Assembly (NCBI GenBank): GCA_032622095.1
Contig: CP136064.1
Coordinates: 7,991,512 to 8,055,511, forward strand
Length of the DNA stretch: 64,000 nt
Origin: Siphonodentalium dalli
Lineage: Eukaryota > Mollusca > Scaphopoda > Gadilida > Siphonodentaliidae
Direction: 5' to 3'
Below the pieces are notes generated by a model. The model did no database searches. It was not told where the DNA came from and was given only the letters and a program-made list of their open reading frames with translations. Both the position numbers and the translations under genes were made by a program. Shown in pieces: positions 181 through 40,617 of this stretch (within the stretch, counting starts at the first letter, position 1; each line of letters begins with the position of its first letter).

Positions 181-624
181 TATATGTGACCAGTCGTAAG
201 TCGGGATTTTTTTACCCTGTGTCAATGCATTCTCTTATATATGCGAGTCGACCATATGTCGCCTCGCATATATAAGAGAATGCATTGGCCTAACAATTTT
301 TTACAATTTTAATAATTGTTTCTTGTATTTTTTTTAAATTTATAATTTCACCCATACAGAGCCCCAGACAAACATGAGCAGACGACACTCTTCTATATGC
401 TTCTATATATGTGTGGGGCTCCCTGCAGGGTAATGGATGTTTTTTATTTTATGTCCTAAAAATTGTAAGAAACATTTATTTAAAAAAAATGATAAAAAAT
501 TGTTAGGCCAATGCATTCTCTTATATATGCGAGGCGACCTATGGTCGACTCGCATATATAAGAGAATGCATTGGCACAGGGTAAAAAAAATCCCGACTTA
601 CGACTGGATTTGATATGGCGGGTC
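181..624. mobile_element. Palindrome-bearing MITE, family A, copy 1
   Basis: Non-autonomous foldback element. The left end reads ATATGTGACC and the right end ACTGGATTTGATATGGCGGG, the inverse of the left end of the better copy at 20257. Next to each end lies a 70-bp palindrome (221-290 and 507-576), the second being the reverse complement of the first. The left terminus has lost about 15 bp relative to copy 2. The interior is AT-rich with a short imperfect hairpin around AGAGCCCCAGACAAACATGA. No coding potential. The superfamily is unresolved because no clear target duplication is visible. Confidence 0.8.
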
Positions 625-1942
625 AAATTTACTTTGAATTAATGGTTGCCGCATTGGAAGTGTGCATCTTTATCCCGATATTATGGAACGTTCATACACT
701 GGCAAGTTTGCACGTCATTTTTTGCAGGCATTAAGTTTTCTCATAGAAATCGGTATGGTGCCAGAAAATGAACGGCAACGCACATATTCAATGCATATTT
801 ACCGGAGCTAACGACATGGTACATATAAATCAGTATGGTGCCAGAAAATGAACGGCAACGCACATATTCAATGCATATTTACCGGAGCTAACGCCATGGC
901 AATTAACATTTCGGTAGTTCAACTTGTAACGGTGCTACTAGCACATTGCCTTAACATACATGTATGGTTAATTCTTGCGAGATAATTGCATGTTATTTAC
1001 TGGCAAATTTCGATAGCATTATACTACATGGTTTTTACCTCTCATGTAGTTAGCCGTGGTACAAATGCATTTTATAAGTCTTTTTGCATTCGGGTTCTAG
1101 CTCATTGTAACTTTCTATTACCGAAATGCCTGCACAAAAATGCCTGGCAAATTTGCGAGTGTATGGACGTATACCCTAATTGAGATTGGAGTCTTAATCC
1201 GTTTTTATAAATTTCTATACAAAACCTGTTAAGAAGTCCAGACGTCTGTGACTAGAGGCAATTATACATTGCCAAATTAACGCAGCCCACCCGCCCGTTG
1301 TGTGCTCTCTTATTTTGGGAATCTAATTATCTCCATTCGTGTTAGCTGATTCAAAATTGAATTACCCCCTTCATATTGTCTTCGGGGTAAGTCGAACGGA
1401 CATATTATAGTATTACTATAATAGTATAGAATTCCAACCGAGCGTTTAATGATCAGGTATGAATTTCGGCTTACACGACATAACCTCTTGCATTTTACAC
1501 AACGATGTAAATTTTGTAAACAACGATACTAAACCTAGTAATTATTGCTTCACATCACATTAAACCGGTGCAACTAAGCACGCCCGGTCCATCCCGGTCC
1601 GCCCCTGTGGTGTCTGGGGGGGGGGGTATTTTAGTGGCCATAACAGTGCTGGTGCGTCACGAAAACACACACGGACGGGTGACGGAATTACATATAAGTG
1701 CCGCTATATATTAACCCATATCTTGCTAGAATTGCAACTGTGTGCCTGCAATATCTTGACGCGAGCTTCATTCGCGGCAAACATATTCGAAGATGGCGGA
1801 TCAATTAATTAATTAATTAATTAATGGTTAATTGCCATGCTTTAGTGGTCGATTTCCCCCTGTTTTTGTGAACGTAGTCGGTGTTAGTTACGCTACATAT
1901 ATGTGGCCACATGCATGACTGTGGGTCTGGCTGCGTGTCTTG
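625..1942. other. Non-coding stretch with small local repeats
   Basis: No gene recognised. It holds an 80-bp direct duplication (749-819 and 829-898, starting at a TCGGTATGGTGCCAG-like sequence), a G run near 1617-1627, an AATT microsatellite at 1802-1826, and at about 1231-1280 the first of three related segments around GTCTGTGACTAGAGGCAATT that recur upstream of the LINE. Confidence 0.6.
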
Positions 1943-2068
1943 ATATACGGCCTGTTACTAACTCGCGGCCATATGGATCCACCAGGTCCGGGGCTGGATG
2001 AATCTTTGAAACCACGGAACCGGACCTGGTGGATCCAATATGGCCGCGAGTTAGTGACAGGTCGTATT
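1943..2068. repeat. Inverted repeat (hairpin), arms about 48 bp
   Basis: The left arm at about 1943-1993 contains ACTAACTCGCGGCCATATGG and GATCCACCAGGTCCGG. The right arm at about 2021-2068 contains the inverse, CCGGACCTGGTGGATCC and ATATGGCCGCGAGTTAGT. The loop is about 28 bp with very few arm mismatches. It is GC-richer than its surroundings and could be a small foldback element. No coding function seen. Confidence 0.8.
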
Positions 2069-2599
2069 GCGGGCACACTATTGCAGTTTTGGCAAGTTAG
2101 GGGACAGTAGCGGCACTCGTGTGTGGTCGCGACCCTAGACTTTGTAATGACACTTCCGCGCTGTTATGGCTACTAAATTACCTCTAAACACAAAATGTAG
2201 CGGTTCGGGCTGATCCGGGCGATGTTTAATTATACCCCTTTAAAAACAAGTAATTGTCGTCTCGCGTCTTTTTAACCTAGTATGTAGATACATTCATGAT
2301 TCCTGAATGTTATCTATAGATTATACAGTCGATGGGCTTTTTATCGCTTGAACATTATTCCAGTTTATTCAGGTTTCTCGACGTCTGTGACTTGAGGCCA
2401 TTATAGCGAACTTAATTTGTTAACGTAATACTCTCGCCGTGTATAATAGTCTAATGGCATTAATATGCGCCACGCGTCCAGGTGTTCACTAATTAAGAAT
2501 GAATTTAATCCTCTCCATAAACATCTATAAACAAATATATTAGGTCTAAAAGGCGTCGTATAGTAATCTGGAAGGATTTAGAAAATCCTTACCTATTAA
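2069..2599. other. Non-coding; second copy of GTCTGTGAC repeat
   Basis: No gene recognised. At about 2378-2410 lies a second copy of the segment seen at 1241 (CGACGTCTGTGACTTGAGG). This could be decayed 5' sequence of the LINE that follows, or an independent short repeat. Confidence 0.45.
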
Positions 2600-2925
2600 G
2601 CTGTCACGCCGTCTGTGACCAGAGGCAATTGTACAGAATCAATTTAATGTAAAACACCACGAGAATGGGGTAATCCTCTTCACAACTCTATATACTCAAC
2701 AAAAAATATTCACACGCAAGATTTGCCACAACTTGAGTGACATATTCACTCTCCAATACTATATATTTACATATACCTAACACTGCATCCGAGCACTCAC
2801 AGGAACATCTCATCGAGTCAGCAGCACTCTTTATCGGAAAGTCTTCCTCCTTAAGGAGAACTTATAAAATTACCTCTAAGAGTAAAATCAAAGAGTAAAC
2901 TTATATAAAATTGCTAAAATCAGAT

Positions 2926-4443
2926 ATGGCCAGTAAACAAACATCCGCGTCGCAGTGCCCTTCTCAGGGCGCCGATTCGAGTGAGTATATTGCCTTCCTG
3001 AGAGAAGATAACAAATCGCTCAGGAAACAGATCGCCGGTCTAGAAATACAACTTGCTGGGTTCAGAGCCTCTATCGACAAGATGGCCGACCGCTTACCCG
3101 AAAAGCAACCCACAGCAGAGAAATCTTCCAGCAAAAAAGAGAAAAAGACCGAGAAAATCAAAAAGAAACCTGAGAAAAACACCACGACACCTGCCACATC
3201 ATCAGCTCCAGTTCCAGATTTCGCCGCAAAACTACCCTCAGCAACCTCTGTACCGCCAGCAACTCCAGTGCCCATCGTTCAAAAAAACCACGAAGACCAC
3301 ATCGAAGTTGAAATGACAGACGCTGAACAAGACATCTCCGACGAAGAATTCGCCACCGTCTTCAAAAACAAAAGAAGACGTAAAGAAAGCATGATGATTC
3401 CAGATCCTGTCAGCCCAATCAGCACGCCAGCCAAAAAGATACGAACGCACACTGAACATAAACAACAACCTAGCCCAACAAAAGGAACCGAACGACCGAC
3501 TATCAGCCACTCCAACAAACGAAGAGACATTCTAATCGCCGAAAACCTAACGAACGAAATGAAGCAGAGTCCATACTTACTACACAGAACAATAACGACA
3601 CGCTACCCCATCCGAACATCTACAACCAGAGCCGGCACACTTCTAATTTATCCACAGAACGAAGAAACAAAACAATATCTACTGACCAAAGCTAAAGACC
3701 TACCCGCCTTCAAGGACAAGAAAGTAACATTCCGCCTAACCAACGGCAGCAATCGCCTGACCAAACCTACAACCCATAAAGCCGTCATCTGTGGCATACC
3801 ACCATCTGTCACGGAAGACGAAATAAAAGAAGACATCGGCAGTAAATACACAGTTCAACGCCTAAAAAGCTCACACGATCAACAACCAACATGGAAAGTG
3901 AAAATAACTTGCGACGATAAAGAATCAAAACAACAGATAATGAACGGCGTTAGACTCGGCTCAAACATGAATAGATTCAAAGTCGTCGACTACAAAGAAC
4001 AGCCCCACGTGACACAATGCTACAAATGTCAGAAGTTTAATCACACGGCCGAATTTTGCAAGAGCACAGACACAATCTGCAAAAATTGCGCGGGAAATCA
4101 CAAGCACCAAGACTGTACCAGTAACATCAAAAGATGCGCGAACTGCGACAGTGATCACCACTCAGCATACAAGGGATGCACAGTTTTTAAAACTGAAGTT
4201 ACAACAAAAGAAACACAAAAGCTCACATACGCAGCCGCCACAAGCAAACCCGCCGACATCACTGAAACCCTAAAGCTTGCAGCTGTAATAACATCGACCA
4301 TTGTCAGCGCCCTGTCTGACAAACAAAGAGATCCACGAAATATCAAAGACAGCGTGTGTCAATACGTCGAACATGCTGTCAACACCATATACCGAACTCA
4401 ACTCACAAAAGAAACCATCCAACAGTTCACATACAGACGTTAA
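2926..4443 (+). CDS. LINE ORF1 protein (gag-like, zinc-knuckle RNA-binding)
   Basis: Predicted to package the LINE RNA into a ribonucleoprotein. The ATG at 2926 (MASKQTS) is chosen; the frame is open about 15 bp further upstream but only from a non-ATG codon. About 505 residues. A likely coiled coil lies near residues 20-58 (EYIAFLREDNKSLRKQ), followed by a Lys-rich and then Pro/Thr-rich linker. Three Cys-His knuckles follow from about residue 365: CYKCQKFNHTAEFC (CX2CX4HX4C), CKNCAGNHKHQDC and CANCDSDHHSAYKGC. This coiled coil plus knuckle layout is typical of Jockey-clade ORF1. It ends 56 bp before ORF2. Third codon positions favour C and A, unlike the AT-rich host exons in the window. Confidence 0.88.
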   Translation: MASKQTSASQCPSQGADSSEYIAFLREDNKSLRKQIAGLEIQLAGFRASIDKMADRLPEKQPTAEKSSSKKEKKTEKIKKKPEKNTTTPATSSAPVPDFAAKLPSATSVPPATPVPIVQKNHEDHIEVEMTDAEQDISDEEFATVFKNKRRRKESMMIPDPVSPISTPAKKIRTHTEHKQQPSPTKGTERPTISHSNKRRDILIAENLTNEMKQSPYLLHRTITTRYPIRTSTTRAGTLLIYPQNEETKQYLLTKAKDLPAFKDKKVTFRLTNGSNRLTKPTTHKAVICGIPPSVTEDEIKEDIGSKYTVQRLKSSHDQQPTWKVKITCDDKESKQQIMNGVRLGSNMNRFKVVDYKEQPHVTQCYKCQKFNHTAEFCKSTDTICKNCAGNHKHQDCTSNIKRCANCDSDHHSAYKGCTVFKTEVTTKETQKLTYAAATSKPADITETLKLAAVITSTIVSALSDKQRDPRNIKDSVCQYVEHAVNTIYRTQLTKETIQQFTYRR

Positions 4444-4499
4444 AACAACACAGCCAAAGCTGACACGCCCAAACACGCAAGCCGATTGTAACACCTACA

Positions 4500-6899
4500 A
4501 TGGCTGACACGACCAAACAGACTACAACAACACGCCGCACACACAACGTGCCCACACAAAAACACTCTTTTCACCTACTCCACGTTAACATAAACGGACT
4601 ATCTGCTAAACGCCAAATTCTTCAAGAGTACATCACCGACCAACAACCAGACGTTATCGCCATCAACGAAACGAAACTCAACGACAACAGCAGGGTTAGC
4701 TTCACCAACTACAAGATCGCCCGCCGTGACCGTACCGCACACGGTGGCGGGGTCGCTCTCCTCATCCATAAAGACCTGAAACACGCCATGCTCAACACCG
4801 ACGACCTAGACGAAGAAACCCTGGCAGTAGAAGTCACCATTCGCAGTGCCAAGACTGCCATCATCGCCACATATAACCCGCCAAACACAGACCTCAGCAA
4901 TGCCTCCTTCAAACACTTCACATCAACCCACCGCCACTGCATCTTCATCGGAGACTACAACGCGAAGCACACCTACTACGGCTGTAAAGATACCAACAGA
5001 AACGGTGACCGAATGTTCAACATCATAGAAGATCTTGATCTACTCATACTAAACAACATAGACGAACCAACACATCACCACGCGGCGACCAACAAATGGG
5101 ACATCCTAGACCTAGCCATTGCCACTCCATCCATCGCATCTAAAGGAATCATGTGCTATATTGGAGACGACGTATCCAGCGACCACCTACCCGTACACAT
5201 AAGATCCAGCAATGCCTCAACCGATCGCCACCCGAAAACCCTCCGCCGCAACCTAAATAAAGCCGACTGGGACAGTTTCCGACAGCAACTCACCAACAGC
5301 ATAGACAATTCACCCATCACATCAACCAGCGACATTGACGCGACATGCCAGCACCTATCCCAAACCCTCGAATCAGCCCTAGATACAGCATGCCCGAAAC
5401 AACAAGTCAACACCACAGCATGGCGAGTCTCCCCCGAAACTCTGAAAATGATCCGACTTAAACGCAAGCTAAGAAGACTACAGCAGAAAAACCCAAACGA
5501 CATGTACTACCGAAATCTTTACAACAACATGAACAGACAAGTCAAAACGGCAGTCAAAAAAGAAAAACAAGCATCCTGGCAGCGGTCGACAACCGAACTC
5601 GGCGATAAAAGAATGAACAGAAACTTCTGGAGTACCTTCAAATCCCTTACCGGCACAGGAAAAAACAACAACAGCACAGAAAAACCCCTCAAAAAAACCG
5701 ATGGCAGCCTGACCTCAGGAGACAAAGAAAAAGCAGAAGCCTTCGCCGACAACCTTCAAAAAATCCACAACACCCACCAAGGCCCAGCCTACGACGACGC
5801 CTTCAAAGCAACTGTAGAAAACCACATCAAAGACAACCCCGACCTCTTCAAACCACTTCCAAGTACCACCAACGACCACGATGATGTCTTCCCCGTAGCA
5901 TCTCCAATCACACAAGACGAAATCGCATCTAACCTAAAGAAGGGAAAAGGCAACTCAGCACCAGGCAACGACAGCATCACATACGCCATCCTACGACAAG
6001 CCCCTCCAGCCTTCTTCGCCAGACTACTCCTTCTATTCAACGCCTGCCTGACCATTGGATACTTCCCAACAGCATGGAAAACCGCCGTCGGTATCATGAT
6101 ACCCAAGCCAGAAAAAGACCGCGCCATTCCCAACAACTATCGACCCATCAGCCTCCTCCAATGTACCGGGAAACTATTCGAAAGAATTATCAGCAGCCGA
6201 CTACGAGAGCACCTTGAATCCTCCAACTTCTTCAACCCGTGGCAGCGTGGCTACCGACAAGGCAAAGAAGGCATGGAACACATCGTTCGACTAGCTGAAG
6301 ACGCCCGACTATCCCTTGGCAAAAACTGGTTAACAGCTGCAGTATTTCTTGACGTTGAGAAGGCCTTCGATTCCGTATGGCACGATGGCCTAAGATACAA
6401 GTTCAGCCAGCTCAACATCGCCCGAAAATACACACGACTAGTATCCTCTTTCCTACAAGATCGTCAACTCAGCGTCCGCATCAACAACGACACATCCAGC
6501 CCAGTATTCCTACGCGCCGGAACCCCACAAGGATCAGTACTCAGCCCACTCCTCTTCCTGATATACGCCAATGACATACCCACCAACCCAAGAAACAACG
6601 TAGAAATCTCACAATTCGCCGACGACCTAGGACTCTGGACAACACACAAAAACCCCAGGATCCTACAAAAACGATTACAAAAGACCCTCGACGACTTATC
6701 AACATGGTGCTCTAGATGGAGAATAAAACTCAACGCCAAGAAAACCCAACTCATCATATTCCACCAGAGAAAAACAACACAGACTATCAACATCAAGATA
6801 GACAACGAGACCGTTCAACCATCCAACCAAGCCATCCTACTAGGAATCACCCTTGACCAACGAATGACCTTCGCCGCGCACATCAAAAAAAGTCGCTGA
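4500..6899 (+). CDS. LINE ORF2: endonuclease-reverse transcriptase (frameshifted before its C-terminus)
   Basis: Catalyses target-primed reverse transcription: the endonuclease nicks DNA and the RT copies the element RNA. An APE-type endonuclease fills residues 20-235, with HVNINGLSAK, a catalytic Glu in INETKL (about residue 57) and SDHLPVHI at about residue 228. The RT domain spans about 440-780, with NNYRPISLLQCTGKLFERII, AVFLDVEKAFDSVWHDGL, AGTPQGSVLSPLLFLIYAND and the active-site box FADD at residues 706-709. The frame stops at TGA 6897-6899 just after a run of seven A (6885-6891). Removing one A would continue into the C-terminal segment at 6892-7308. No RNase H domain is visible, as expected for Jockey. 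Confidence 0.92.
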   Translation: MADTTKQTTTTRRTHNVPTQKHSFHLLHVNINGLSAKRQILQEYITDQQPDVIAINETKLNDNSRVSFTNYKIARRDRTAHGGGVALLIHKDLKHAMLNTDDLDEETLAVEVTIRSAKTAIIATYNPPNTDLSNASFKHFTSTHRHCIFIGDYNAKHTYYGCKDTNRNGDRMFNIIEDLDLLILNNIDEPTHHHAATNKWDILDLAIATPSIASKGIMCYIGDDVSSDHLPVHIRSSNASTDRHPKTLRRNLNKADWDSFRQQLTNSIDNSPITSTSDIDATCQHLSQTLESALDTACPKQQVNTTAWRVSPETLKMIRLKRKLRRLQQKNPNDMYYRNLYNNMNRQVKTAVKKEKQASWQRSTTELGDKRMNRNFWSTFKSLTGTGKNNNSTEKPLKKTDGSLTSGDKEKAEAFADNLQKIHNTHQGPAYDDAFKATVENHIKDNPDLFKPLPSTTNDHDDVFPVASPITQDEIASNLKKGKGNSAPGNDSITYAILRQAPPAFFARLLLLFNACLTIGYFPTAWKTAVGIMIPKPEKDRAIPNNYRPISLLQCTGKLFERIISSRLREHLESSNFFNPWQRGYRQGKEGMEHIVRLAEDARLSLGKNWLTAAVFLDVEKAFDSVWHDGLRYKFSQLNIARKYTRLVSSFLQDRQLSVRINNDTSSPVFLRAGTPQGSVLSPLLFLIYANDIPTNPRNNVEISQFADDLGLWTTHKNPRILQKRLQKTLDDLSTWCSRWRIKLNAKKTQLIIFHQRKTTQTINIKIDNETVQPSNQAILLGITLDQRMTFAAHIKKSR

Positions 6900-7308
6900 C
6901 AAAGCCAGAAAAAGAACAAACCTGCTAAGTTGTCTCAGAGGTACCGACTGGGGAACCAACAGCCAGACCATCATCAACCTCTTCAAACTATACGTCCGCC
7001 CAGTAATGGAGTATGGCGCACCCGTCATAACAGCAGCCTCCAACAGCTCAATCGAAACCCTGCAGAAAGTCCAAAACAAAGCTCTCCGCGTCGCTCTACA
7101 TCAGCCAATCTTCACACCAATCCAAGCCCTCCACGACGCAGCAGACATACCTACGATGAAACAACGACTAACCGACCTCAGAAACCAGACCCTCGCCAGA
7201 ATCGACAACAGCCCACTCATCCAAGAACTCCATCTACGAAACCAGCTGCTCTCCACCAAAAAGACCAAGTCCATCCTAGAAATCGACAACACCGACAGAC
7301 CCATCTAG
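6892..7308 (+). pseudogene. C-terminal part of LINE ORF2 in the +1 frame
   Basis: 138 open codons in the frame displaced by one base from the upstream ORF2. The segment starts VADKARKRTNLL and includes LYVRPVMEYGAP and VQNKALRVAL, the usual tail of Jockey/CR1-like ORF2 (the region after the RT thumb). It ends at TAG 7306-7308. With the upstream part the full protein would be about 935 residues, normal for the family. The break lies in a homopolymer, so a true inactivating insertion and a sequencing error are both possible. Confidence 0.85.
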
Positions 7309-12641: not shown

Positions 12642-13004
12642 TGGGAACTTAAAATATTGCCAAGCATAGTGTGTACAGAGGAGACATTGCAACATAGCCC
12701 GTGTATTTTGCGTCCAGCAGTATTGCGTGAACGATTCTTGTGACAAATATGTTTTAAGCCGTGTTTTGCTCTTCTCCTTATCTGACTTTCTAAAAGGCCT
12801 CCGGTCAACCTGCCGGTGCATCACTTTAACTCGTTATTGTAATTCTGGTGTGCCAGGTTTGGTGTTCACCTCGTTTCGGCAACGTGTTACCTGTTAAACA
12901 CACACTTACCAAAAATTGGTTACACATAAAAACATATGTTTGGAGACGGACATCTGCTATACGTCTTTTGGGGCATACAGAATCTGTTATGAAATTTTAC
13001 GACA
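12642..13004. other. Non-coding stretch
   Basis: Nothing recognised. Confidence 0.5.
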
Positions 13005-13174
13005 CCCTGTGCCAATGCATTCTCTTGTATATGCGAGTCGCCCATAGGGAGCCTCGCACGTAGAAGAGAATGTATTAGCCTAACAAGATTTACCTTGACC
13101 TCGTAACCCAGTGCATTCTCTTATATATAAGGCTACCTATGGGAGACTCATATATAATAGAATGCATTGGCACA
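13005..13174. repeat. Palindromic hairpin cassette, subfamily with TTACCTTGACC spacer
   Basis: Starts CCCTGTGCCAATGCATTCTC and ends AATGCATTGGCACATGG, so the cassette has its own inverted ends. It holds two diverged copies of the 70-bp hairpin (13011-13080 and about 13111-13171) separated by AACAAGATTTACCTTGACC. The same spacer occurs in the cassette at 32249, defining a subfamily distinct from those in the MITEs. Confidence 0.75.
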
Positions 13175-14057
13175 TGGTCTGTACTGCACCACGCGTATTC
13201 CGCACCAACAGTTACACATCAGCAAAAATAATGAACAAATATTGTTTTAAAATACTCCCGTGTTTCATTTCCTGTGTGGTCCAAATATCTCTACGAATCG
13301 ATGTTAAATCATCGAAGTGTGCCTCTGAATTCTGGAATCAATCGCAGGACCATTTTATGAGCATTTATGTAAGAACATTTAAATTATATCCAGTCGCCAT
13401 TTTCAAAGTTCAAATTTGCATTTGGCCGGGTTGAGAAGATATCACGTGGCGTTTTCAGCCAATCACACGAGCCGATCAGTTCTGCCACTGTCACACATTC
13501 GTAGGATACACACGTAAAACACTTCCCGAGAGACAGTTCCTCGTGAGAGACCAATTAACCCCCGAAATGCTTGCAACCCCAAGATTGACCCCCTTGTGTT
13601 TAGTGTGCAGCGCAGCTCCCTTCATGAAAGAGTTAATACAATATTGCGGACCAATGCCACTTCAATATTTCACTTATATACTTATAATGTAAAATGACCA
13701 ATGAGGCATGCAAGTTATACGCTTGAAACTTGTCGTATATATAGTTAAACGGACGTAAGTCAAACAATGCTCTCCCGGAATCAAAACAAACAACATACTG
13801 TGACGTACATCACGAAGAATGTGTGTTTCCCGGGCTTGGAGTTAGCCGTTTGAACGGGAACAATAGTAGTTCGCATTACTATATAGTAACTTGTTCGCAA
13901 ATACCATACTCACATATAAATTCTCGCAGTATATTGCATGCAATTTCTGCTCTTTCAGGTAACATAAAGATTAACTCACAAGGCGGGTCGAGTGAAGTGA
14001 GGACTGTCGCTCATCTGATAGGATCGAATGCTATGAGAAACGTCCCACAAGGTTTGT
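13175..14057. other. Non-coding stretch
   Basis: No gene recognised; no repeat boundary seen. Confidence 0.5.
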
Positions 14058-14394
14058 TTAACCCTTTACCCAACAGAACGGCCCTGTGCCAATGCATTCT
14101 CTTATATATGCGAGTCCACCATAGGTCGCCTCGCATATATAAGACAATGCATTGGCTTAACACATTTTTTTAGGCCAATGCATTATCTTATATATGCGAG
14201 GCGACCTATGGTCGACTCGCATATATAAGAGAATGCATTGGCACAGGGCATAACTGTAACTATCACAATGTGGTCAAGGAGCCGGTTCCAATGATATCCA
14301 TATTTGTATGGTTCTATTGAGACAGACCGAAGATATTTTAGGCTGTTGAAGCTTTATTTGGCCGGTTTGGCCGTTTTGTTGGGTAAAGGGTTAA
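14058..14394. mobile_element. piggyBac-like MITE carrying the palindromic cassette (copy 1)
   Basis: Bounded by TTAA at both ends (14058-14061 and 14391-14394). The terminal inverted repeats are CCCTTTACCCAACAGAACGG on the left and CCGTTTTGTTGGGTAAAGGG on the right. A TTAA target with CCCTTT termini is the piggyBac-superfamily signature. The interior carries the inverted pair of 70-bp hairpins (14088-14156 and 14173-14243) and a flank containing GTGGTCAAGGAGCCGGTTCC. The copy at 16669 is in the opposite orientation. Non-coding. Confidence 0.85.
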
Positions 14395-16588: not shown

Positions 16589-16668
16589 TCAATCACTCTG
16601 GCAGGGCGGGAGACAATACTGGAATTGAAATCGAAATTCGTGACGCATGCAACGTTATTATATGGCGT

Positions 16669-17068
16669 TTAACCCTTTACCCAACAAAGCGGCCAAAATC
16701 GGCCAAATAAAGCTTCAACAGCCTAAAATATCTTCGGTCTGTCTCAATAGAACCATACAAATATGGGTATCATTGGAACCGGCTCCTTGACCACATTGTG
16801 ATAGTTACAGTTATGCCCTGTGCCAATGCATTCTCTTATATGTGCGAGTCGACCATAGGTCGCCTCGCATATATAAGAGAATGCATTGGCCTAAAAAAAA
16901 TCTTTTTTTAACACTTTTTACCATTTTTTCTTACATTCTTTAACAAGTTTATAATTTTTAATGTGTTAAGCCAATGCATTCTCTTATATATGCGAGGCGA
17001 CCTATGGTCGACTCGCATATATAAGAGAATGCATTGGCACAGTGCCCTTCTTCTGGGTAAAGGGTTAA
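16669..17068. mobile_element. piggyBac-like MITE carrying the palindromic cassette (copy 2, inverted)
   Basis: TTAA at 16669-16672 and 17065-17068. Left end CCCTTTACCCAACAAAGCGG, right end CTGGGTAAAGGG. The right terminal repeat is shortened relative to copy 1. It carries GGAACCGGCTCCTTGACCAC, the inverse of copy 1, then the hairpin pair at 16822-16891 and 16970-17039. Its right TTAA is also the left TTAA of the next element. Confidence 0.85.
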
Positions 17069-18190: not shown

Positions 18191-18796
18191 TCTTTAATCT
18201 GAAACCTATCGATGTTTTATCGATCACGGTGTTATCGTTAGACACCCTTTCGCATAAAGAACTACGACAGATAATTATTACCAATCGCTGTTTGTAGTCG
18301 GACGGTCTAACAAGCTTTTCACAGAAACGACGACTACGATTCCATTTGTGAGACGATCGTGCTTGTCACTCGCAGTAAGCGATTACGGATCTTCGTGTCG
18401 TGATTATTTTGTACTTAATTCTGTTAGCAGGTTATAGTTAGCGCTTTGTGTTTCGCAAAATTATCGTGTTTCGGGATGACGAATGACACGTTTTTCACTA
18501 ATAGATACAAATTAAGGCCACATGGAAATCACAGTTTGGGGATTAGATCTCATAGTCTTCTCCCGCACCAAGCAGCCGAGAAACGATCGAGAACGTATTA
18601 CTTTCTGGTGTCTTTGTGGGTTTTGTTGAAAATCGAAAACCGTAATCATAGCAACGGATAAGGAAAAACGAACGACAGCAAATAGAAAGAACACAATATC
18701 TAATGACGTAGTACCCTTTTCGTAATAATTACCTGTTGTCGTTCACTATGAGAAAGGTGTCGATTAGCATTTCTGTTTTATGTTTTATCATTTCAG
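18191..18796. other. Region upstream of the TNF-like exon
   Basis: No convincing upstream exon was found. A candidate splice donor (GCA|GTAAGC at 18375) is visible, but no reading frame encoding the missing N-terminal part of the ligand could be tied to it. The last 60 bp, GTTTTATGTTTTATCATTTC then AG, form a plausible acceptor for the exon that follows. Confidence 0.4.
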
Positions 18797-19218
18797 TTCC
18801 CGGTCGACAGTATCCTATATCCGACTGGATACACGAGCAGGACATCGCATTCACCAACAATGTTATTTATAGAAGCGGAAGAATGGTTGTACCGGAGAAC
18901 GGACTATATTTTGTCTACAGTCACATCTCATTCTTTGAAGTATATCACACTACGAGCGAATCGGCCCGATCGCTATCCCAGAGCATCTCACACTATTTAT
19001 ACAGATATAACATAATATATGAACGAGGAGGAGAGGAGCTTCTCACACAGGCGTCAATCACCAAATGTGACGTCACACGCTCGTTCGGGGAGTATTCCAG
19101 TTACATCGGCGCAGTATTTCATCTACGTCAAGGCGATGAATTATTTGTGAAAGTGTCAAATCTAACAATTCTGTCTAGAGATCCCCGGCAGAATTACTTC
19201 GGTCTTTTTAAATTATAG
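18797..19218 (+). CDS. TNF-superfamily ligand, TNF-homology-domain exon (probably terminal)
   Basis: Encodes about 140 residues of a TNF homology domain, the receptor-binding trimer-forming beta-jellyroll. Recognisable parts are ISDWIHEQDIAF, the GRMVVPENGLYFVYSHISF strand pair, SSYIGAVFHLRQGDELFVKV, and the C-terminal NYFGLFKL typical of TNF ligands, then TAG at 19216-19218. The A strand with the usual AHL-like motif is absent. The frame is open upstream to an ATG at 18736 or 18748 (MRKVSISISVLCFIISVPG), which could be a signal sequence. TTTCATTTCAG at 18786-18796 is an equally good acceptor, and the missing A strand favours an upstream exon. Known members signal to TNF receptors in apoptosis and immunity; the specific ligand cannot be named. 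Confidence 0.82.
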
Positions 19219-20256: not shown

Positions 20257-20723
20257 ATATGTGACCCGCCATATCAAATCCAGTCCGAAGTCGGGATTTT
20301 TTTACCCTGTGCCAATGCATTCTCTTATATATGCGAGTCGACCATAGGTCGCCTCGCATATATAAGAGAATGCATTGGCCTAACAATTTTTAATCATTTT
20401 TTTGAAAATAAATGTTTCTTACAATTTTTAGGACATAAAATAAAAAAACATCCATTACCCTGCAGGGAGCCCCACACATATATAGAAGCATATAGAAGAG
20501 TGTCGTCTGCTCATGTTTGTCTGGGGCTCTGTATGGGTGAAATTATAAAATTGTTAAAGAATACAAGAAAAAATTATTAAAATTGTAAAAAATTGTTAGG
20601 CCAATGCATTCTCTTATATATGCGAGGCGACCTATGGTCGACTCGCATATATAAGAGAATGCATTGGCACAGGGTAAAAAAAATCCCGACTTCCGACTGG
20701 ATTTGATATGGCGGGTCACATAT
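20257..20723. mobile_element. Palindrome-bearing MITE, family A, copy 2 (best preserved)
   Basis: 467 bp. The ends ATATGTGACCCGCCATATCA and TGATATGGCGGGTCACATAT are inverse. The inverted repeat continues through AAGTCGGGATTTTTTTACCC and the hairpin, about 125 bp per arm. Hairpins are at 20311-20380 and 20599-20669. The interior has an imperfect hairpin from GGAGCCCCACACATATATAG to GTCTGGGGCTCTGTATGGG. Non-coding. The terminal motif does not match a superfamily I can name. Confidence 0.88.
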
Positions 20724-26429: not shown

Positions 26430-26600
26430 TATCCCTTTCATGAGGTTCATGGCATGAGCTACGCTGGTTTAGCATTAAAGACCCTGTGCCAGTGCATTCT
26501 CTTATAAATGCGAGTCTCTCATATGGAGCCTCGCATATATAGGAGAATGCACATCATTATAAGATCAATAAGAGAATGCATTAGCAAACATTCAGAAAGC
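26430..26600. repeat. Degenerate palindromic cassette in a third sequence context
   Basis: The flank TCATGAGGTTCATGGCATGA then GCTACGCTGGTTTAGCATT matches 50930-50975. It runs into ACCCTGTGCCAGTGCATTCT and a diverged hairpin (26482-26549), with a partial second half at 26565-26586. The hairpin loop reads TCTCTCATATGGAGCC, different from the main type. Confidence 0.65.
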
Positions 26601-27626
26601 TCCGGTCGGGGAAGGGTTAAGTGAGAATGATGTGTTTTCTTCCTGGTGTAGATTTCCCGCGATTAACATACTATAATGTGTTTTGTAATGAGCAGCGGGA
26701 AGCTCGTTTCCGGCCGCCGATTTTCACGAGAGTTATGGCCCTTTTTGCGGTTTTCCCATGCACCTGGTGACGTGTAGTTGTAAGTCATTCACTTAAGTTT
26801 TGTCTGGTGGGTTACCTTATTTTAACTTATATAACTACAATTAATGTCATTCTGACTGATCTATAACTTATATTGCTTACAACGGACATGGGCACTATGA
26901 ACCCAAACAAATTCACATACACATGTATTAATGCTGTTAGTCCAATTAAGGTATGCTAGGCTGTTAAATTATATTATTTTTGTTTACCTTTATCTTGACA
27001 ACTGTAAACTGCCGCAAGGTAGACTGCTCTGGACATCATTAGTGAAGTGTCCACTTCCTGAGTCCAAGACAGGGGTGCCTCTACTGTAGGACCGGGATAC
27101 GAGCTTCCCCCACTCATTAATTATGGGCATCACAAAACAAAATAAGGGCGAATGATGTGTTTTCTTCCTGGTGTAGATCTCCCGCGATTAACATACAATT
27201 ATGAGTGCACACATCTATACTGTCATCCGTGTATGACTCGGTATGTGGTTTAAACCGAAATGAGGTATTGACATAATTAACATGCTCTATTGCATACCCA
27301 CGAGGCAGACGATGCAGCTGAGCAAGTTTGAATTCACTACAACTTCCTGGGGGAAAAGTGGGGATTTAGTATTTGTGTGTAATTCACTGCACATATTGTT
27401 CGCATTGGACAGCGAGCTAGGTGTAAAACACATCGTCGGTGAGATCACAAGTGGTGAGATCACTAGAGTTATTTGCTATCCGACAACGTATACATTCAAG
27501 AGACACTGCATGGAATGGTTCGCTGGGCGGCAAAGTATATATTCAGAGACAGTGTGAATCTTATCGATATCTTATATTTGCTTCAAGTTTCTGTATAATC
27601 GGCCGTGATATAATTAGACCGACAAC
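26601..27626. other. 5' flank of the Toll-like receptor, with a 45-bp direct repeat
   Basis: The segment GAATGATGTGTTTTCTTCCT followed by GGTGTAGAT-TCCCGCGATTA occurs at about 26626-26671 and again at about 27151-27197, nearly identical. No coding exon was identified upstream of the receptor; the open frame at 27282-27557 has no recognisable features. Confidence 0.6.
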
Positions 27627-29942
27627 ATGGTTGTGTGGTGCTACTCTTACAATGTTAAGCCGTTGAAACTCGTGTGTTTTGCGACCGTATTGACAGCGTG
27701 TGTCATGGTTGACAGTGGAACTGTTTGCCCTGCTGAGTGTGTTTGTCTTGAAAATTCAGGAAAATTATGGCTGAAGTGCCACAGCGATCCAGAGCATATC
27801 ATTCTCCAGCCAAGTGTCAACGTAGTAGTCATCAACGTGACAATGACAGCGGTGGTATCGTTAGATAGATTGTTCAACCACAGTTCATGGAATTTCGTGT
27901 TGAATTTCAGTTTGTATGCACACAGAAACGTCCGAATTACAAACGACACATTCAAAACTATGGTAAACGTGACACACATATCTATGACGAACATATATTC
28001 TCCTGGGCGGTTCGATGTTGGCTTTTTGAAGCACTTCCGGAATATGAAGCATCTAGATCTTAGTGAAAACGAAGACTTGAGACTGAACGACGTTGGAGAC
28101 ATTCTGTCCTGTCTTCGAGGCACATCACTGCGTGAGTTGAATCTCCGAGCAACTAACAGGTGGCGGTCGACAGAAATAACAGACGTCAACTCACAGTTTT
28201 TCAGGACGTTAATGAGTTTGAAACTGGAGAAGCTGGATATGTCTTATACAGGTTTCCTACTAATAGATGTAGCTTCTGTGTTCAATGATCGAAACGTAGA
28301 CGGATTCGATTTCTTAGAAGAATGGAATTTAATGAACACCACTCTCATCCTAAATCAACGTTCGAAAATGCATCCGAATGGTTCGTTACGAAGATATACA
28401 AAGAAAATTCCGGCGTTGCGAAAATTAGAATTAGGCGGATTTCGCTTATCAAGATCTCGACAAGACAAATGTGAACGGAGTGCGCAGCCATATAACACGT
28501 GCGGTCATCATGACGAATGGATTCTTCCAGTTAACTTCACAGAACTAAGGTTGGAAAACATCCACTTCAACAAAGGGTGTTTTAGAAAAGACCCGTGCCC
28601 CGGTTTGAATGTAAACAATTCCCTGGAAGTTTTAATTTTGAAAAATATCGATTTAATTGCGATTGGAATAGATCTCGGCCGTTTCATACCCAAACTACGA
28701 GAAATCGATGTCCAGTCCAACACTATAACTTACTTGTCACCCACAATATTCAAAGGAATGATCAACTTAAAAGTCATTAGAGCGGGAAGAAACAACTTAG
28801 GTACAAATCCAGATCTTGCGCTGTCAAAAATATTTTCTTTTGTGACAAATTTAGAAATAATTGATCTATCGTACAATAAATTGGATATTATTCCAGACAA
28901 CATGTTCATTGAAAACAAGAAAGTCCGAGTCATTGACTTGTCAAACAATCGTCTCACCAGATTAACACTGACAATCGGCCACCTTTACAAACTAGAGTTA
29001 CTGGACTTGAGTGGTAACCGTGTGATGTTTGTGGAACAGCACTCACTAGGGGGAATCAGCACACTCAATCAATTGGGAAAATTACAATTCGTCGATCTCA
29101 GAAAGAATTATTTCGTGTGTGATTGTGATAACGCAGATTTCATTAAAAGTCTGAAAGGAATTCAGAAAGCCCTGGTGGACGGTGAATGTTATGAGTGTTC
29201 AGAGGGGGGCAGAAACCGACTCCTTATCGACGTCAGTGAAAACGAACTAAAACTCAGCTGTTTCATCGTCTTGTTTAAGACAGTTCCTTCGTTAATCGGA
29301 TCTCTCGTTCTCTGTGTCGTCTGCGCAGTTGTGTTGTACCGGAAGCGACTACTATTCGTTAAGATATACGTGTGGGTACGGTTTTGGAGGTATCGGCGAA
29401 GAAAGTTCCAAACATCCGATCGAGTATTTTTCGCTTATTGCTCAAAAGATAAGGTTTCAGCGCTTAAGCTGTTCAACACGATCAACCCGCTTCTAATGCG
29501 GCTATTAGAAACAACCGAGGATGTTCTATATATAAACGACAAACATTTCCGTATCCCGGGCCAGATTGACGAGGAGATAGTCCGAGGAATCATGACGTGT
29601 CGCTGCACAGTAGCACTTATAACCGATGATTTTGTCAATAGCGCGTGGACTAATCTAGAAATGTCATACACCTGGGTGAAAAAGAAGCCACTTATACCAG
29701 TATTCTTGAAAGCTATGGACAAGCGCCACCTTCCGGGAGTATTGCGTTATTATTATGACAAGAACGTCAGGCTGTTGTATCCCGATGACCCGGAAATGGA
29801 GGACATGTTTATTCAGTCCCTCTTGAATGGAATAGCTGGTGCTCTGAACAAAAAGGAGAAAATGGTGGGATTTGAGTTAGTAAATGGGACTAACGCCGAG
29901 AGAGATGCAGTTGATCCACTGCTGGCGGAAGACAATGTTTAG
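27627..29942 (+). CDS. Toll-like receptor (LRR-TM-TIR), single coding exon
   Basis: 771 residues, a complete transmembrane pattern receptor. Signal sequence at about 12-30 (LKLVCFATVLTACVMVDSG), then a Cys-rich cap starting CPAECVC at 34-40. Leucine-rich repeats run to about 500, clearest in MKHLDLSENEDL, LEIIDLSYNKLDIIPDNMF, VRVIDLSNNRLTRL and LELLDLSGNRVMFV. One C-terminal cap follows (NYFVCDCDNADF ... GECYECSEGG), then a transmembrane helix at about 552-572. The cytoplasmic TIR domain spans about 599-740: box 1 RVFFAYCSKD, box 2 region FRIPGQIDEEIVRGI at 641-655, then SAWTNLEMSYTW and KKPLIPVFL. It should dimerise on ligand binding and recruit MyD88-type adaptors toward NF-kB; ligand unknown. 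It is intronless in the coding part, common for invertebrate TLRs. Start at 27627 gives a slightly long pre-signal stretch; Met-27 is too late. Confidence 0.95.
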   Translation: MVVWCYSYNVKPLKLVCFATVLTACVMVDSGTVCPAECVCLENSGKLWLKCHSDPEHIILQPSVNVVVINVTMTAVVSLDRLFNHSSWNFVLNFSLYAHRNVRITNDTFKTMVNVTHISMTNIYSPGRFDVGFLKHFRNMKHLDLSENEDLRLNDVGDILSCLRGTSLRELNLRATNRWRSTEITDVNSQFFRTLMSLKLEKLDMSYTGFLLIDVASVFNDRNVDGFDFLEEWNLMNTTLILNQRSKMHPNGSLRRYTKKIPALRKLELGGFRLSRSRQDKCERSAQPYNTCGHHDEWILPVNFTELRLENIHFNKGCFRKDPCPGLNVNNSLEVLILKNIDLIAIGIDLGRFIPKLREIDVQSNTITYLSPTIFKGMINLKVIRAGRNNLGTNPDLALSKIFSFVTNLEIIDLSYNKLDIIPDNMFIENKKVRVIDLSNNRLTRLTLTIGHLYKLELLDLSGNRVMFVEQHSLGGISTLNQLGKLQFVDLRKNYFVCDCDNADFIKSLKGIQKALVDGECYECSEGGRNRLLIDVSENELKLSCFIVLFKTVPSLIGSLVLCVVCAVVLYRKRLLFVKIYVWVRFWRYRRRKFQTSDRVFFAYCSKDKVSALKLFNTINPLLMRLLETTEDVLYINDKHFRIPGQIDEEIVRGIMTCRCTVALITDDFVNSAWTNLEMSYTWVKKKPLIPVFLKAMDKRHLPGVLRYYYDKNVRLLYPDDPEMEDMFIQSLLNGIAGALNKKEKMVGFELVNGTNAERDAVDPLLAEDNV

Positions 29943-29949
29943 TCAACCG

Positions 29950-32248: not shown

Positions 32249-32424
32249 CCTATGTAGTTAATGTGTTCTCTTATGTCCCATGTGGAGCCTCTCATATATA
32301 AGATAATACATTGGCATAACAGAATTTACCTTGACCTTGTAAGCCAGTTAATTCTCTTATATATGCGAGGCTATTACATATCTGTGTGAAAACTTCTTTA
32401 TATATATAAGATAATGCACTGCTA
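32249..32424. repeat. Palindromic hairpin cassette, degenerate
   Basis: TGTTCTCTTATGTCCCATGT and CCTCTCATATATAAGATAAT form a decayed hairpin. The spacer AACAGAATTTACCTTGACC matches the cassette at 13005, then CCAGTTAATTCTCTTATATA starts a second decayed hairpin ending TATATAAGATAATGCACTGC. It lies 11 bp upstream of the foldback element. Confidence 0.6.
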
Positions 32425-32435
32425 CAATATCTTTC

Positions 32436-34908: not shown

Positions 34909-35394
34909 CAGACAGCGTATAGCATCGTCAACTCACTCTCATGAATAATCCGAATAAACGCTAGCAAATTACTATTTTCTCGGCTTTGGGGGGGGGGGGG
35001 GTAATTTTTTTTCGATTCGAATAGAGGAACCCACACATCAAAGATCAGATAACGATTTTTTTAAGTCTGTTATTTTCCACCGCCGATATTTTTAGAGGCC
35101 CAGTAAACAGTCGACGAGAAGACGGTCTCGGACCAAATTGCGGAAGAAGATGTATTACTGGAGTGAAGACAGTTGTTATTGAACATATTGGCTTTCCGTA
35201 GTTATCTAAGTGCTAGAAGCCGCCTCCATACTTAGAACATAAAACATGGCTTAAATGACAGATTAATCAATGAGATTTGCCCATGAAATGTTGCAATAAA
35301 TAGATAAATGCATAGCTGACTTCTATTTCATAGAATGCATGTACTTTTGACTGAGAAAACTTTAGTGAAAGATTACCGGTCAATGGGATACATC
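34909..35394. other. Non-coding; G homopolymer
   Basis: A run of about 14 G near 34987-35001. No gene recognised. Confidence 0.5.
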
Positions 35395-37090: not shown

Positions 37091-37104
37091 GATTAATGTA
37101 TAGC

Positions 37105-37180
37105 GTTACTGTTATTGGTGGTGGTGTTGTTGTTGTTGTTGTTGGTGGTTTTGTTTTTGGTGTTGTTGTTGTTGTTTGGT
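37105..37180. repeat. GTT/GGT microsatellite
   Basis: Impure GTTGTTGTTGTTGTT and GGTGGT tract directly after the LINE fragment; possibly grown from the LINE 3' tail. Confidence 0.85.
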
Positions 37181-39186
37181 GTTGTGTGAAGATTTTGGTT
37201 CTGTTAGATATAAAGATTAAGACGATGACGACGAAGATGTTGATGATTATTTTGATTATGAAGTTGACTCTGATGTCAAAATTAAATTGATGATAATGTT
37301 GATAAAAACGATGATGAACATGCTGCATGTCAATCAAGAGATCACTGTATATTGTGTATACAATGCATTATGTTCCTCCTCTCAATCTTCTGTGTATATA
37401 CTTTCCATTTATTGATATCATTGTTATTTTTGATCAGAGAATAAAGCATTCTAGGAATGTTCTAACATCGCCAAAAATCTCCAACAAATCGACCGCAATT
37501 CTCGATTATGGACGCAAATATATCGGCGATAAACCATACTCGGCAAATGTCCAATTGCTATCGATACAAAGCTGCTTGTGAACAGATTTACGTTTGACGC
37601 TATAACAGACGGGATGATCGGGGTGGGGGTTCGTAAGATCTTAAAACCGGACCAGGTGGTTATAATGGACAGTATATCTTCGTGGTAACAATTGTTTCTA
37701 TGAAAATATTATAAATGTAGAACTCGATTCTAAGATAATAGTATAGATGCAGAAAGCGGTTATAGGATAATATTATACATATATAAAGCGATTCTAGGAT
37801 AATATTTTACACGTAAAACGAGATGCTAGGACAATAGTGTACATGTCGAAAGCGATTCTAGGATAATGTACATGCAGAAAGCGATTAATCGAATCAATAT
37901 ATGTCGCACGCCGTTAAATCTCACAGAGCGAACACTGGTCGACCTTTGCGAGTTGCAGGAACAATTAAAAGAACGACTAGTTGTCTGTTGTATATTATAT
38001 CGCATAAATTCCCAAACATAACCAGCAGTAAAGGGGATTGCCGGAAACAATTACAATACCGTTTGACCTTCTGAATCATAGAGTATCGACCACAAGCAGC
38101 CGCACGTCACCTTTAGCATCATCATTAGTCTATTGCTCAAATTAACGGATATACAGCAGCTAGGCTAGCGCCTACCTTAGAAGTTGCAATCGACAGTTCA
38201 CAGGCTCGTCCACAATGAAAAAGACAATATACCAGGTCGTTGATTAAGTTTGCAGACCGAAGACGACACGCGTGGCCGCTGAAGGAACCATACCCTAAGT
38301 CGTTAATTTCATTATCCGACCCTATAGCCACAAATACGTAACTGGAATAGGACATGGAATTTTAATTTATTTCGAGGCCACGAAATAGCTAATTCGTAGC
38401 CAGGAAATACTAATTCGTGGCCATTAATTAGTATTTCGTTTTTATCCCATTCAGTCACTGTAATGGAACTGTTACATCAGAAGTTATTCTATTGCCGGCA
38501 TTATGATGGTTCAGGAATGATATTTTATGATAAAAAATAACACAATTAGGGACAAAATCACGCATAATTATATATACCTGGAATCCATTAAACTTTCCTG
38601 AATGAACTTTAGACTACATAATTGCCGTGTTACCGAAAGCTTAAATTTAGATCGCAATTAACTCCGAAATAGAGAGTTATCGTGTAACTACTATCAACAT
38701 GTGATCACTGAAAATCAAGCCATGTAACATAATTCATTTGTTGTTTTTTTGTGGGCTCATGTGGTGTGAAATGCATTCTGGAGACGAAATACCGAGTTTA
38801 AAGAATACTTGTGTTATTCTTCAGAGAAAATTTCCCGATAGGGGTTGTTAATTTGGCGCACTTGCCTCATATTCACAACGTGTGTGTTACGGTTCTATTT
38901 CAAGCCAATCACGACTGTTACGGTTCAATACAGGATATGTATTCCGACGATTTCTGCAATTGGGCCCAATATAGTTTTGTGTATCAATCGTTTTAAACCC
39001 AGTATTGACTGTAGGGTATCATTTACCCAATCCGGCAGGCATATTAACAAAAACATAGTATAAATATATATCAGCAGGAGATTAAGTGACATAGTATACT
39101 TAGTGAATCGACCAGGATTAGGCCAAACAAATGGTGTTGTGCACCCCCCCCCCCCCCCCCCAAGCCCTAAACATACATCCCACACA
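37181..39186. other. Non-coding, with a family B scrap and a decayed 40-bp tandem repeat
   Basis: At about 37465-37550 the sequence CTAACATCGCCAAAAATCTC then TATATCGGCGATAAACCA is a diverged piece of repeat family B in the orientation of the 7.8-kb copy. At about 37725-37895 a unit of roughly 40 bp (CGATTCTAGGATAATATT plus CATGCAGAAAG) recurs about four times. At 38365-38435 ATTTCG and GGCCACGAA blocks form short inverted repeats. No gene. Confidence 0.55.
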
Positions 39187-39830
39187 TCCCGCCTCGACCC
39201 AAAATGGCCGCCCTCCAAATGGGTCCAAATCGGTCAAGTGGTCGAGAAATGACATAGGTCCCCAATTTGAACCCCTCCGGGGATTGGCCATTTTGGATAT
39301 GTGGGTGTGTGTGGAGTGTATGTTTGTGGTGTATTTGGGCCAACCTTACAACACCTTTGTTTTACCTAAATCGGTTATGGAGTCGTGAAATGGCATGATA
39401 GCCATATGGGTTGGCCATTTTGGGTCGGAGCGGGTGCGTGTGGAGTGAATGCTTGTGGTGTCTTGGGCCATCCTACAATAACCTTTGTTTGACATAAATC
39501 GGGCAATGAGCCCGACATGGCAATGGTCCCCTATTTGGACGCCACTGGATGGCGGTCAATTTCGATCGGGGTGGGGTATGTCGGATGTAAACTTATGGTG
39601 TCTTATGGGCAACCCTTCAGCACACTCTGTGTGACCTAAATATATCAAGGGGCCGAGAAATGGCATGGATCCCCATGTTGAATCCCTCTGAACGACGGCC
39701 ATTTTGGGTCAGTGCGGTGTGTGTGGATATGTTTGGTGTCTCATGTGCCACCATACAACACTCTGTGTTCGATATAATTCGGTCAAGGGGCCGAGGAATG
39801 GCATGGGCCCCTGTTTGAATCAAGTTTCAC
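39187..39830. repeat. 138-bp tandem repeat, about 4.6 decayed units
   Basis: Landmarks TGGCCATTTTGG, GTGTGGAGTGTATGTTTGTG, ACAACACCTTTGTTTTACCT and AAATCGGTTATGGAG recur at roughly 138-bp spacing (AAATCGG-type starts near 39227, 39367, 39500, 39638, 39774). Units differ considerably. A run of about 17 C near 39146-39163 precedes the array. Confidence 0.75.
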
Positions 39831-40229
39831 GCGACCGAGTGTGGTCTTATTTGTGTCACATACTCTTGGAGTTTCCGTTCAAGCATTATCCAGATGGAAT
39901 ATAAGACAAGAGACTCAATGTTTGCGAAGAAGTTCTAGGCACATGCGTAAGTATGTGACTCTAAGGGTACACAATCCGATTAGATGGTCCCAAATGCCAT
40001 CAGATTGCAACAACATCAGCATTTCTTGAAATGCCGCTTCAGTTATTGGAAAAAAATAATGCTAACCACTGTCAATTATAGTATCAAATTGTCCAAAAAG
40101 TTTTATAAATCAACATATATATGTTCAATGCACTTCTGTGTCGAGACTATGTCGATCGACATTCGTCGAATATTTTCCAGGCCGCCACATGTTACAGGTA
40201 GTGAAAAATAACATGTTTCAAACATCGAT

Positions 40230-40617
40230 ATATGTGACCCGCCATATCAAATCCAGTCGCCTCGCATATATAAAAGAATGCATTGGCCTAACAATTTTTT
40301 ACAATTTTAATAATTTTTTGTTGTATTCTTTAACAATTTTATAATTTTACCCATACAGAGCCCCAGACAAACATGAACAGACGACACTCTTCTAAATGCT
40401 TCTATATATGTGTGGGGCTCCCTGCAGGGTGATGGATGTTTTTTATTTTATGTCCTAAAAATTGTAAAAAACATTTATTTAAAAAAAATGATAAAAAATT
40501 GTTAGGCAAATGCATTCTCTAATATATGCGAGGTGACCTATGGTCGACTCGCATACATAAGATAATGCATTGGCACAGGGTAAAACAAATCCCGACTTAC
40601 GACTGGATTTGATATGG
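40230..40617. mobile_element. Palindrome-bearing MITE, family A, copy 3 (internally deleted)
   Basis: Left end ATATGTGACCCGCCATATCA then AATCCAGTCG joins directly to CCTCGCATATATAAAAGAAT, so about 95 bp including half of the left hairpin is missing. GTCG occurs at both sides of the gap in the intact copy, consistent with a microhomology deletion. The right hairpin at 40507-40575 is complete. The right end has lost its final bases after GGATTTGATATGG. Confidence 0.82.

What the first reader, a model, noticed from the sequence alone, without database searches (positions are those of the whole stretch)
181..40617. A 70-bp near-perfect hairpin, always as an inverted pair, shared by MITE families with unrelated ends
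Seen: the hairpin has a 27-bp stem (TGCCAATGCATTCTCTTATA then TATGCGAG), one T/C mismatch, a 5-bp stem CGACC/GGTCG and loop ATA. It occurs at 221, 507, 14088, 14173, 16822, 16970, 20311, 20599, 40507 and in diverged form at 13011, 13111, 26482 and 32249 onward. Where a pair is complete, the second copy is the reverse complement of the first, so the single mismatch shows orientation. Hosts include elements with ATATGTGACCCGCC ends and elements with TTAA-CCCTTTACCC (piggyBac-like) ends. Inference: the CCCTGTGCC...GGCACAGGG cassette is itself mobile or is exchanged between elements, or its structure is selected, for example as a transposase or small-RNA substrate.
Basis: partly seen in the sequence, partly recalled or inferred. 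Interest (0 to 1): 0.75.

Follow-up and report, generated by a model that had tools for sequence, protein, structure and literature searches.

The report
Shared hairpin module across unrelated MITEs
A 67-base hairpin with its spacer sits, over a hundred thousand times in one animal genome, inside several families of small non-coding transposons whose ends belong to different target-site classes, so such elements can swap internal parts; a milder form of this was already described in corals.

Summary
The hairpin is real, at the stated places and far beyond chance. The window lies in a 2.23-Gb eukaryote genome where the exact 33-base outer arm occurs 123,984 times. Four host families were resolved: A (TA target site, TGTGACCCGCC ends), B (TTAA, CCCTTTACCC), C (TTAA, CCCTTTGAGTGCC, one hairpin) and an older D (TTAA, CCCTTTCATGAC). 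A, B and C have the same 67-bp hairpin consensus and inner spacers 84-95% alike, while unrelated sequence starts right outside CCCTGTG. So ends were exchanged rather than diverged, across two target-site classes. D differs in the hairpin only by two compensatory base pairs; the T:C mismatch is kept. The cassette is not clearly a transposon of its own: no constant duplication at its edges, one solo candidate, almost no empty hosts. Best reading: an existing hairpin module was captured as filler when new MITEs formed, then amplified with them, possibly because the palindrome helps transposition (untested). A few cassettes look like LINE-type retrocopies. Closest published case: CMITE of corals, all with piggyBac-type ends. 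New variant of a known kind.

The parts
185..627 (+). Family A MITE (tips damaged), hairpins at 222-288 and 508-574
   Evidence: left tip has a deletion, right tip mutated
12985..13180 (+). Family D-like cassette, hairpin 13012-13078 and a diverged second one 13108-13170
   Evidence: left flank TGAAATTTTACGA matches D left end
14058..14394 (+). Family B MITE with TTAA duplication, hairpins 14089-14155 and 14175-14241
16669..17068 (-). Family B MITE with TTAA duplication, opposite orientation, hairpins 16823-16889 and 16971-17037
20258..20722 (-). Family A MITE with TA duplication, hairpins 20312-20378 and 20601-20667
26433..26620 (-). Family D MITE, decayed, one readable hairpin 26489-26555, right flank TTAA
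32249..32425 (.). Decayed D-like cassette with arms at 32289 and 32342
40233..40617 (+). Family A MITE, half of first hairpin and right tip lost, second hairpin 40507-40573

Best explanation
A, B, C and D are non-autonomous DNA transposons (MITEs) with different ends. Each is a pair of transposon ends with the same module (CCCTGTG + 67-bp hairpin + AT-rich spacer, usually as an inverted pair) as the filling between them. The module existed before the young families, in an older TTAA element such as D. It was taken up as internal filler when new MITEs formed (inferred: aborted gap repair that switched to an existing copy), for A, B and C apparently separately, and once by an element of another class (A, TA target). 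Each composite was then multiplied by whatever transposase fits its ends. Shown: the shared module, the different ends, two target-site classes, the sharp edge, amplification almost only as composites. Inferred: the capture mechanism, the direction D to A/B/C, and that the palindrome is kept because it helps transposition, as palindromes bound by paired cysteine-rich domains do in piggyBac-type ends.
For: Same 67-bp hairpin consensus in A (79 units), B (48), C (5); spacers alike at 51/58 (A/B), 39/41 (A/C), 36/43 (B/C) aligned positions, ends before CCCTGTG without real similarity. TA duplication 14 of 19 A, TTAA 12 of 14 B (one more is CTAA on both sides, one TTAA by eye), 2 of 3 C, 3 of 4 unique D. 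All 8 A, 2 C and 4 D-left ends found in 264 kb (window + 20 samples) lie within 300 bp of an arm. Exact empty B pattern 0 hits, exact empty A pattern one locus. B looks like about 145 bp of one end + cassette + about 20 bp of the other end. Hairpin change D to A/B/C is two pairs changed on both sides. piggyBac-type ends carry palindromes bound by two cysteine-rich domains (PMC11707139, passages).
Against: The edge lies at the same base (CCCTGTG) in all four families, which plain template switching does not predict. A transposase for TA sites would have no known use for a piggyBac-type palindrome. No module was seen in the 16 transposase-gene upstream flanks read, of 128 matches, and other TTAACCCTTT elements lack it (for example L014:4465-6033), so it is not required for TTAA elements in general. 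No expression or transposition data.
Confidence: 0.5

Rival explanations
1. The cassette was once a mobile element of its own (CCCTGTGCC terminal repeats; its CCCT fits the piggyBac-type CC[C/T]T motif given in PMC2872659). It inserted into other MITEs, and the nested products amplified.
For: The same sharp edges CCCTGTG/CACAGGG in A, B and D, at the base of an inverted repeat. L101 is a solo cassette flanked TTAA and TCAA. In A the joins read TTTTTTTA/TAAAAAAA, compatible with a TA duplication or a mutated TTAA. CMITE-IN of corals formed by such an insertion (PMC2872659).
Against: No duplication at the joins of B (CGG / CATAAC) or D; no inverted pair within 600 bp among the 100 listed of 298 TTAA-edged arms; of 13 regions fetched 4 are A with one changed base, 2 B, 4 D-type, 2 unrecognised, 1 solo.
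Confidence: 0.27
2. Passive hitch-hiking: the module was captured or inherited by chance and has no role; its sameness in A, B and C only reflects recent exchange.
For: A, B and C are young (per-base divergence about 2-4% outside the hairpins), so little change is expected; C does with one hairpin.
Against: D is old (mean 89.1% to its consensus) yet its hairpin consensus differs only by two compensated pairs; the T:C mismatch is kept in D too (12 of 14 units; all but one of the 100 listed of 3,362 places).
Confidence: 0.18
3. The hairpin is kept as a small-RNA precursor or another host-side function.
For: Length and stem resemble a precursor hairpin. A few A copies look reverse-transcribed, so transcripts probably exist.
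Against: No Rfam match in the window at gathering threshold; no expression data here; over 100,000 copies are explained by transposition.
Confidence: 0.05

Closest known systems
CMITE families of Acropora corals (PMC2872659; abstract, Results and Discussion read)
   Same: Several MITE families with different terminal repeats share one internal region that is more conserved than the ends; TTAA sites; CC[C/T]T tips; tandem arrays; a composite (CMITE-IN) made by insertion; authors suggest the internal region helps transposition
   Different: CMITEs are about 100 bp with a 75-base internal region, about 1,600 copies estimated, all with piggyBac-type ends. Here the region is a hairpin, usually paired and inverted, with 123,984 exact arms, and one host family has TA sites. 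The CMITE sequence is in a figure not held, so homology or hairpin form there could not be checked
MER6 MITE carrying the V domain of SINEs (PMC6887750; abstract only)
   Same: A mariner-type MITE whose interior is a module taken from another kind of element
   Different: The module there comes from a SINE; no sharing with TTAA MITEs is stated in the abstract
Palindromes in piggyBac and piggyBat ends (PMC11707139; passages)
   Same: Palindromic sequences near TTAA ends, bound by two cysteine-rich domains of a transposase dimer
   Different: Those are 19-bp or shorter imperfect palindromes close to the tips; here it is 67 bp, near-perfect, and also in a TA-site family; binding untested
SINE-like / LINE-mobilised sequences
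   Same: A few T6-edged copies have 15-25 bp direct flanking repeats and an A-run 3' end
   Different: Only 3 of 21 examined; the bulk of copies have TA or TTAA duplications

Membership tests
MITE (miniature non-autonomous DNA transposon) | Short, non-coding, terminal inverted repeats, high copy number, constant short target-site duplication | tested here: met
   Lengths 222-477 bp for A, B, C and D; TA for A, TTAA for B, C, D; copy number
piggyBac-type (TTAA) MITE: B, C, D | TTAA duplication and CC[C/T]T tip | tested here: met
   12 of 14 B, 2 of 3 C, 3 of 4 unique D with TTAA; tips CCCTTT; motif as given in PMC2872659
piggyBac-type (TTAA) MITE: B, C, D | Tips matching an autonomous element of the genome | tested here: inconclusive
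   16 upstream flanks of 128 transposase matches read; two show TTAACCCTTTATCTGCTATA, none the B, C or D tips
Tc1/mariner-type MITE: A | TA target-site duplication | tested here: met
   14 of 19; other 2-bp superfamilies not excluded
Tc1/mariner-type MITE: A | Tips matching a known transposase-coding element | not tested
   No partner was searched for
CMITE-like modular MITE | Different ends with a common, better conserved interior | tested here: met
CMITE-like modular MITE | Sequence homology to the CMITE internal region | not testable with these tools
   Sequence is only in a figure
Independent mobile cassette | Solo copies with a constant target-site duplication | tested here: inconclusive
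   One solo TTAA/TCAA candidate in 13 regions; no inverted TTAA pair in the 100 listed of 298; T6-edged solos have no constant duplication
LINE-type retrocopy (minority of T6-edged copies) | A-run 3' end, variable 5' end, 7-25 bp direct flanking repeat | tested here: inconclusive
   3 of 21 meet it (L050, L058, L067); 13 show neither

The most novel reading that the evidence does not exclude
The hairpin is a portable amplification module: a palindrome that serves transposases of two superfamilies (TTAA and TA), moves between their MITEs, keeps its pairing through compensatory change and its single T:C mismatch by selection, and accounts for the success of each host family that gains it.
Probability: 0.17. 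Interest if true: 0.82.

Novelty: new variant of a known kind. Interest (0 to 1): 0.5.

Why it matters
How MITEs are born and why some explode in number is open. Here one module with a clear boundary sits in families of two target-site classes, with over 100,000 nearly identical copies, so its capture can be dated by comparing species and its effect measured by deleting it from otherwise equal elements. It also warns that grouping MITEs by internal sequence can join unrelated families.

Tried and rejected
Ends merely diverged from one family: rejected between A and the others, because the AT-rich spacer is still 84-95% alike among A, B and C while the ends before CCCTGTG do not align beyond short matches. 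Among B, C and D the tip TTAACCCTTT is common, so for those part of the difference could be divergence.

Arm-to-arm copying that keeps the hairpin perfect: disfavoured, because it should erase the T:C mismatch. That mismatch is in every listed place of the young type (100 listed of 119,957) and all but one of the listed of the old type (100 listed of 3,362); both patterns allowed T or G and C or A there. In my loci 78 of 79 A, 48 of 48 B, 3 of 5 C (two are T:G) and 12 of 14 D units keep it. L055 (inverted 17-bp flank) shows that local template switching does happen.

Hairpin as a part of full-length piggyBac-type elements: no arm (at most 8 of 26 mismatches) in 16 upstream flanks of 861 bp, of 128 matches; three related flanks (L110, L114, L117) have a one-mismatch CCCTGTGCC, which I take as chance. 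Downstream flanks were not read.

Hosts without the module: 0 for the exact B pattern, one locus for A. Both patterns were exact, so decayed empty hosts would be missed. In one search, 4 of 10 B-end matches lay over 300 bp from an arm, but the reversed control gave 6 matches, so they say little; 3 of 8 D-right matches were far (control 0): one is a decayed D copy, one a D-like end without a hairpin (window 50946), one looks unrelated; 7 of 20 TTAACCCTTT tips were far (control 3), so TTAA elements without the module exist.

My first family sorting was wrong because short markers matched the hairpin; one search replaced it. Hairpins less diverged than the rest in A (1.3 against 2.1-2.4%), B (0.6 against 3.0-3.9%) and C (0.5 against 1.8%): not used, because most loci were chosen by an exact arm. 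Rfam (window only) and viral contigs (exact 24-base pattern) gave nothing. The species was not identified; one literature search for it did not help.

Full report
Observation. The window is G000:C4:7991512-8055511 of a 2,226,750,531-base genome in nine contigs; Pfam finds TNF and LRR/TIR-domain frames, so I take it for an animal. Half-arm matches number 28 in the window against 0.0 expected over 20 mononucleotide shuffles. The fold is as described: 27-bp stem, T/C mismatch, CGACC/GGTCG, loop AUA; two intact copies give -55.1 kcal/mol, z -14.7 and -12.9.

Host families. I read the window, 20 systematic 10-kb samples (L009-L028; 13 of the 20 have no arm within 6 mismatches) and 73 targeted regions, besides the eight loci. 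Four families emerge. A: TGTGACCCGCCATATCAAATCCAGTCG tips, consensus 459 bp, TA on both sides in 14 of 19 complete copies. B: CCCTTTACCCAACA tips, consensus 389 bp, TTAA in 12 of 14, CTAA on both sides in one, TTAA by eye in the last. C: CCCTTTGAGTGCCAGG tips, consensus 226 bp from 3 copies, TTAA in 2 of 3, one hairpin. D: CCCTTTCATGAC-type tips, 235-259 bp, TTAA in 3 of 4 unique copies, old (sequences). Of the 123,984 exact arms, 80,329 have the B context (G before CCCTG), 21,092 the A context (TTA), 1,043 a C or T there (the 20 regions fetched are A, B and D copies with changed flanks and a few unclear ones); the remaining 21,520 (subtraction) include C and others. All are counts of exact arms, hence lower bounds.

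What is shared. 150 hairpin units in exact register give the same 67-bp consensus for A (79), B (48), C (5) and 4 unassigned. D (14 units, mean 89.1% to its consensus) differs at four positions: CTCCC/GGGAG in place of CGACC/GGTCG, two base pairs changed on both sides, the neighbouring T:C mismatch unchanged. Beyond the hairpin, A, B and C share AT-rich spacer: 51 of 58, 39 of 41 and 36 of 43 aligned positions (A/B, A/C, B/C); the A/B score is 74 against at most 39 in 200 shuffles. On the other side the likeness stops at CCCTGTG: A has TTTTTTTA, B GTTATG or CGG, C CATATA, D AAAA. Spacer that is still 84-95% alike beside wholly different ends speaks for exchange of ends. Since A makes TA and B, C, D make TTAA duplications, the exchange crosses target-site classes. 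That A is Tc1/mariner-type rests on the TA duplication and recalled knowledge.

Module and hosts. In 264 kb (window plus 20 samples) all 8 A ends, 2 C ends and 4 D-left ends lie within 300 bp of an arm (B and D-right controls in Tried and rejected). An exact empty B pattern has 0 hits, an exact empty A pattern one locus, a short A palindrome with TA flanks. So composites, not bare hosts, were amplified. The cassette alone is not an evident transposon: among the 100 listed of 298 arms preceded by TTAA no two lie inverted within 600 bp; of 13 regions fetched 4 are A copies with a changed flank base, 2 B, 4 D-type, 2 unrecognised on the left, and only L101 is a solo cassette, flanked TTAA and TCAA and itself in a roughly 500-bp tandem array. 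B and D show no duplication at the join.

A side path. 341 arms are preceded by six T and a flank without the G bases of A; seven of the listed ones form a local cluster on C2. I examined 20 plus L039. Three have long direct repeats at their edges: L050 17 bp, L067 21 bp, L058 25 bp, against at most 8 in 400 unmatched pairs. Read so that they end in TAAAAAA, their 5' ends differ (full cassette, near-complete A, internal truncation): the pattern of LINE-type retrocopies primed at the internal A run. L055 has an inverted flank. L051, L052, L062 and L068 share a second boundary at AACATCC without a duplication. The other 13 show neither; some keep an A end on one side. A LINE-like endonuclease/reverse-transcriptase frame lies in the window (4464-6896); no link was tested.

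Mechanism. MITEs are commonly two transposon ends around a filler (general knowledge), and B fits: about 145 bp of one end, the cassette, about 20 bp of the other. I therefore favour capture of an existing module as filler, then amplification. Why the module stays intact is open. piggyBac-type transposases bind palindromes near their ends with paired cysteine-rich domains (PMC11707139, passages), which would make a palindrome useful to B, C and D; for A another transposase would have to profit too. The two compensatory pairs favour selection on pairing or symmetry (6.7e-5 by chance if four independent changes are assumed), but one template-switch event could also give them. Against a requirement: C works with one hairpin, and TTAACCCTTT elements without the module exist.

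Comparison. CMITEs of corals (PMC2872659; abstract, Results, Discussion) are the closest case. Differences here: hairpin structure, copy number, and a TA-site family. MER6 (PMC6887750, abstract) is a mariner-type MITE with a module from a SINE. Searches (open-licence PubMed Central only) listed, to the extent that I read the listings, no case of one module in both TA and TTAA MITEs; most subscription papers are not held. Verdict: new variant of a known kind, of moderate interest.

Noticed in passing
L050, L058, L067: Three cassette copies end at an internal A run and have 17-25 bp direct flanking repeats: LINE-type retrocopies of a DNA-transposon transcript.
   Followed up: partly
L051, L052, L062, L068: Four unlinked half-copies share the same two boundaries (T6/A6 and AACATCC) but have no flanking duplication; unexplained.
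   Followed up: partly
L055: The right flank is the reverse complement of the left flank for 12 bp beyond the A/T run: a likely template-switch scar.
   Followed up: no
G000:C1 about 0.73-0.93 Mb: Cassettes recur at constant spacings of about 11,175 and 14,558 bp: large tandem arrays that contain them.
   Followed up: no
L101 (C3:22824700-22825400) and C3:23121418: Solo cassette with a long palindromic spacer inside a roughly 500-bp tandem repeat.
   Followed up: partly
L071: D-type hairpin units with their spacer repeated head to tail at least four times.
   Followed up: no
genome G000: 128 matches to the piggyBac-type transposase domain (PF13843), many in open frames of 500-720 codons: a rich set.
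   Followed up: partly
window 4464-6896: Open frame with endonuclease and reverse-transcriptase domains (LINE-like); the 514-codon frame just upstream has no Pfam match.
   Followed up: no
window 27618-29939 and 18712-19215: LRR/TIR-domain frame (774 aa) and a TNF-family frame (168 aa).
   Followed up: no
window 742-899: A 78-bp unit repeated at 80-bp spacing, 96% identical.
   Followed up: no
L009-L028: Arms are unevenly spread: 13 of 20 samples have none, L009 has 11; perhaps more toward chromosome ends, not tested.
   Followed up: no
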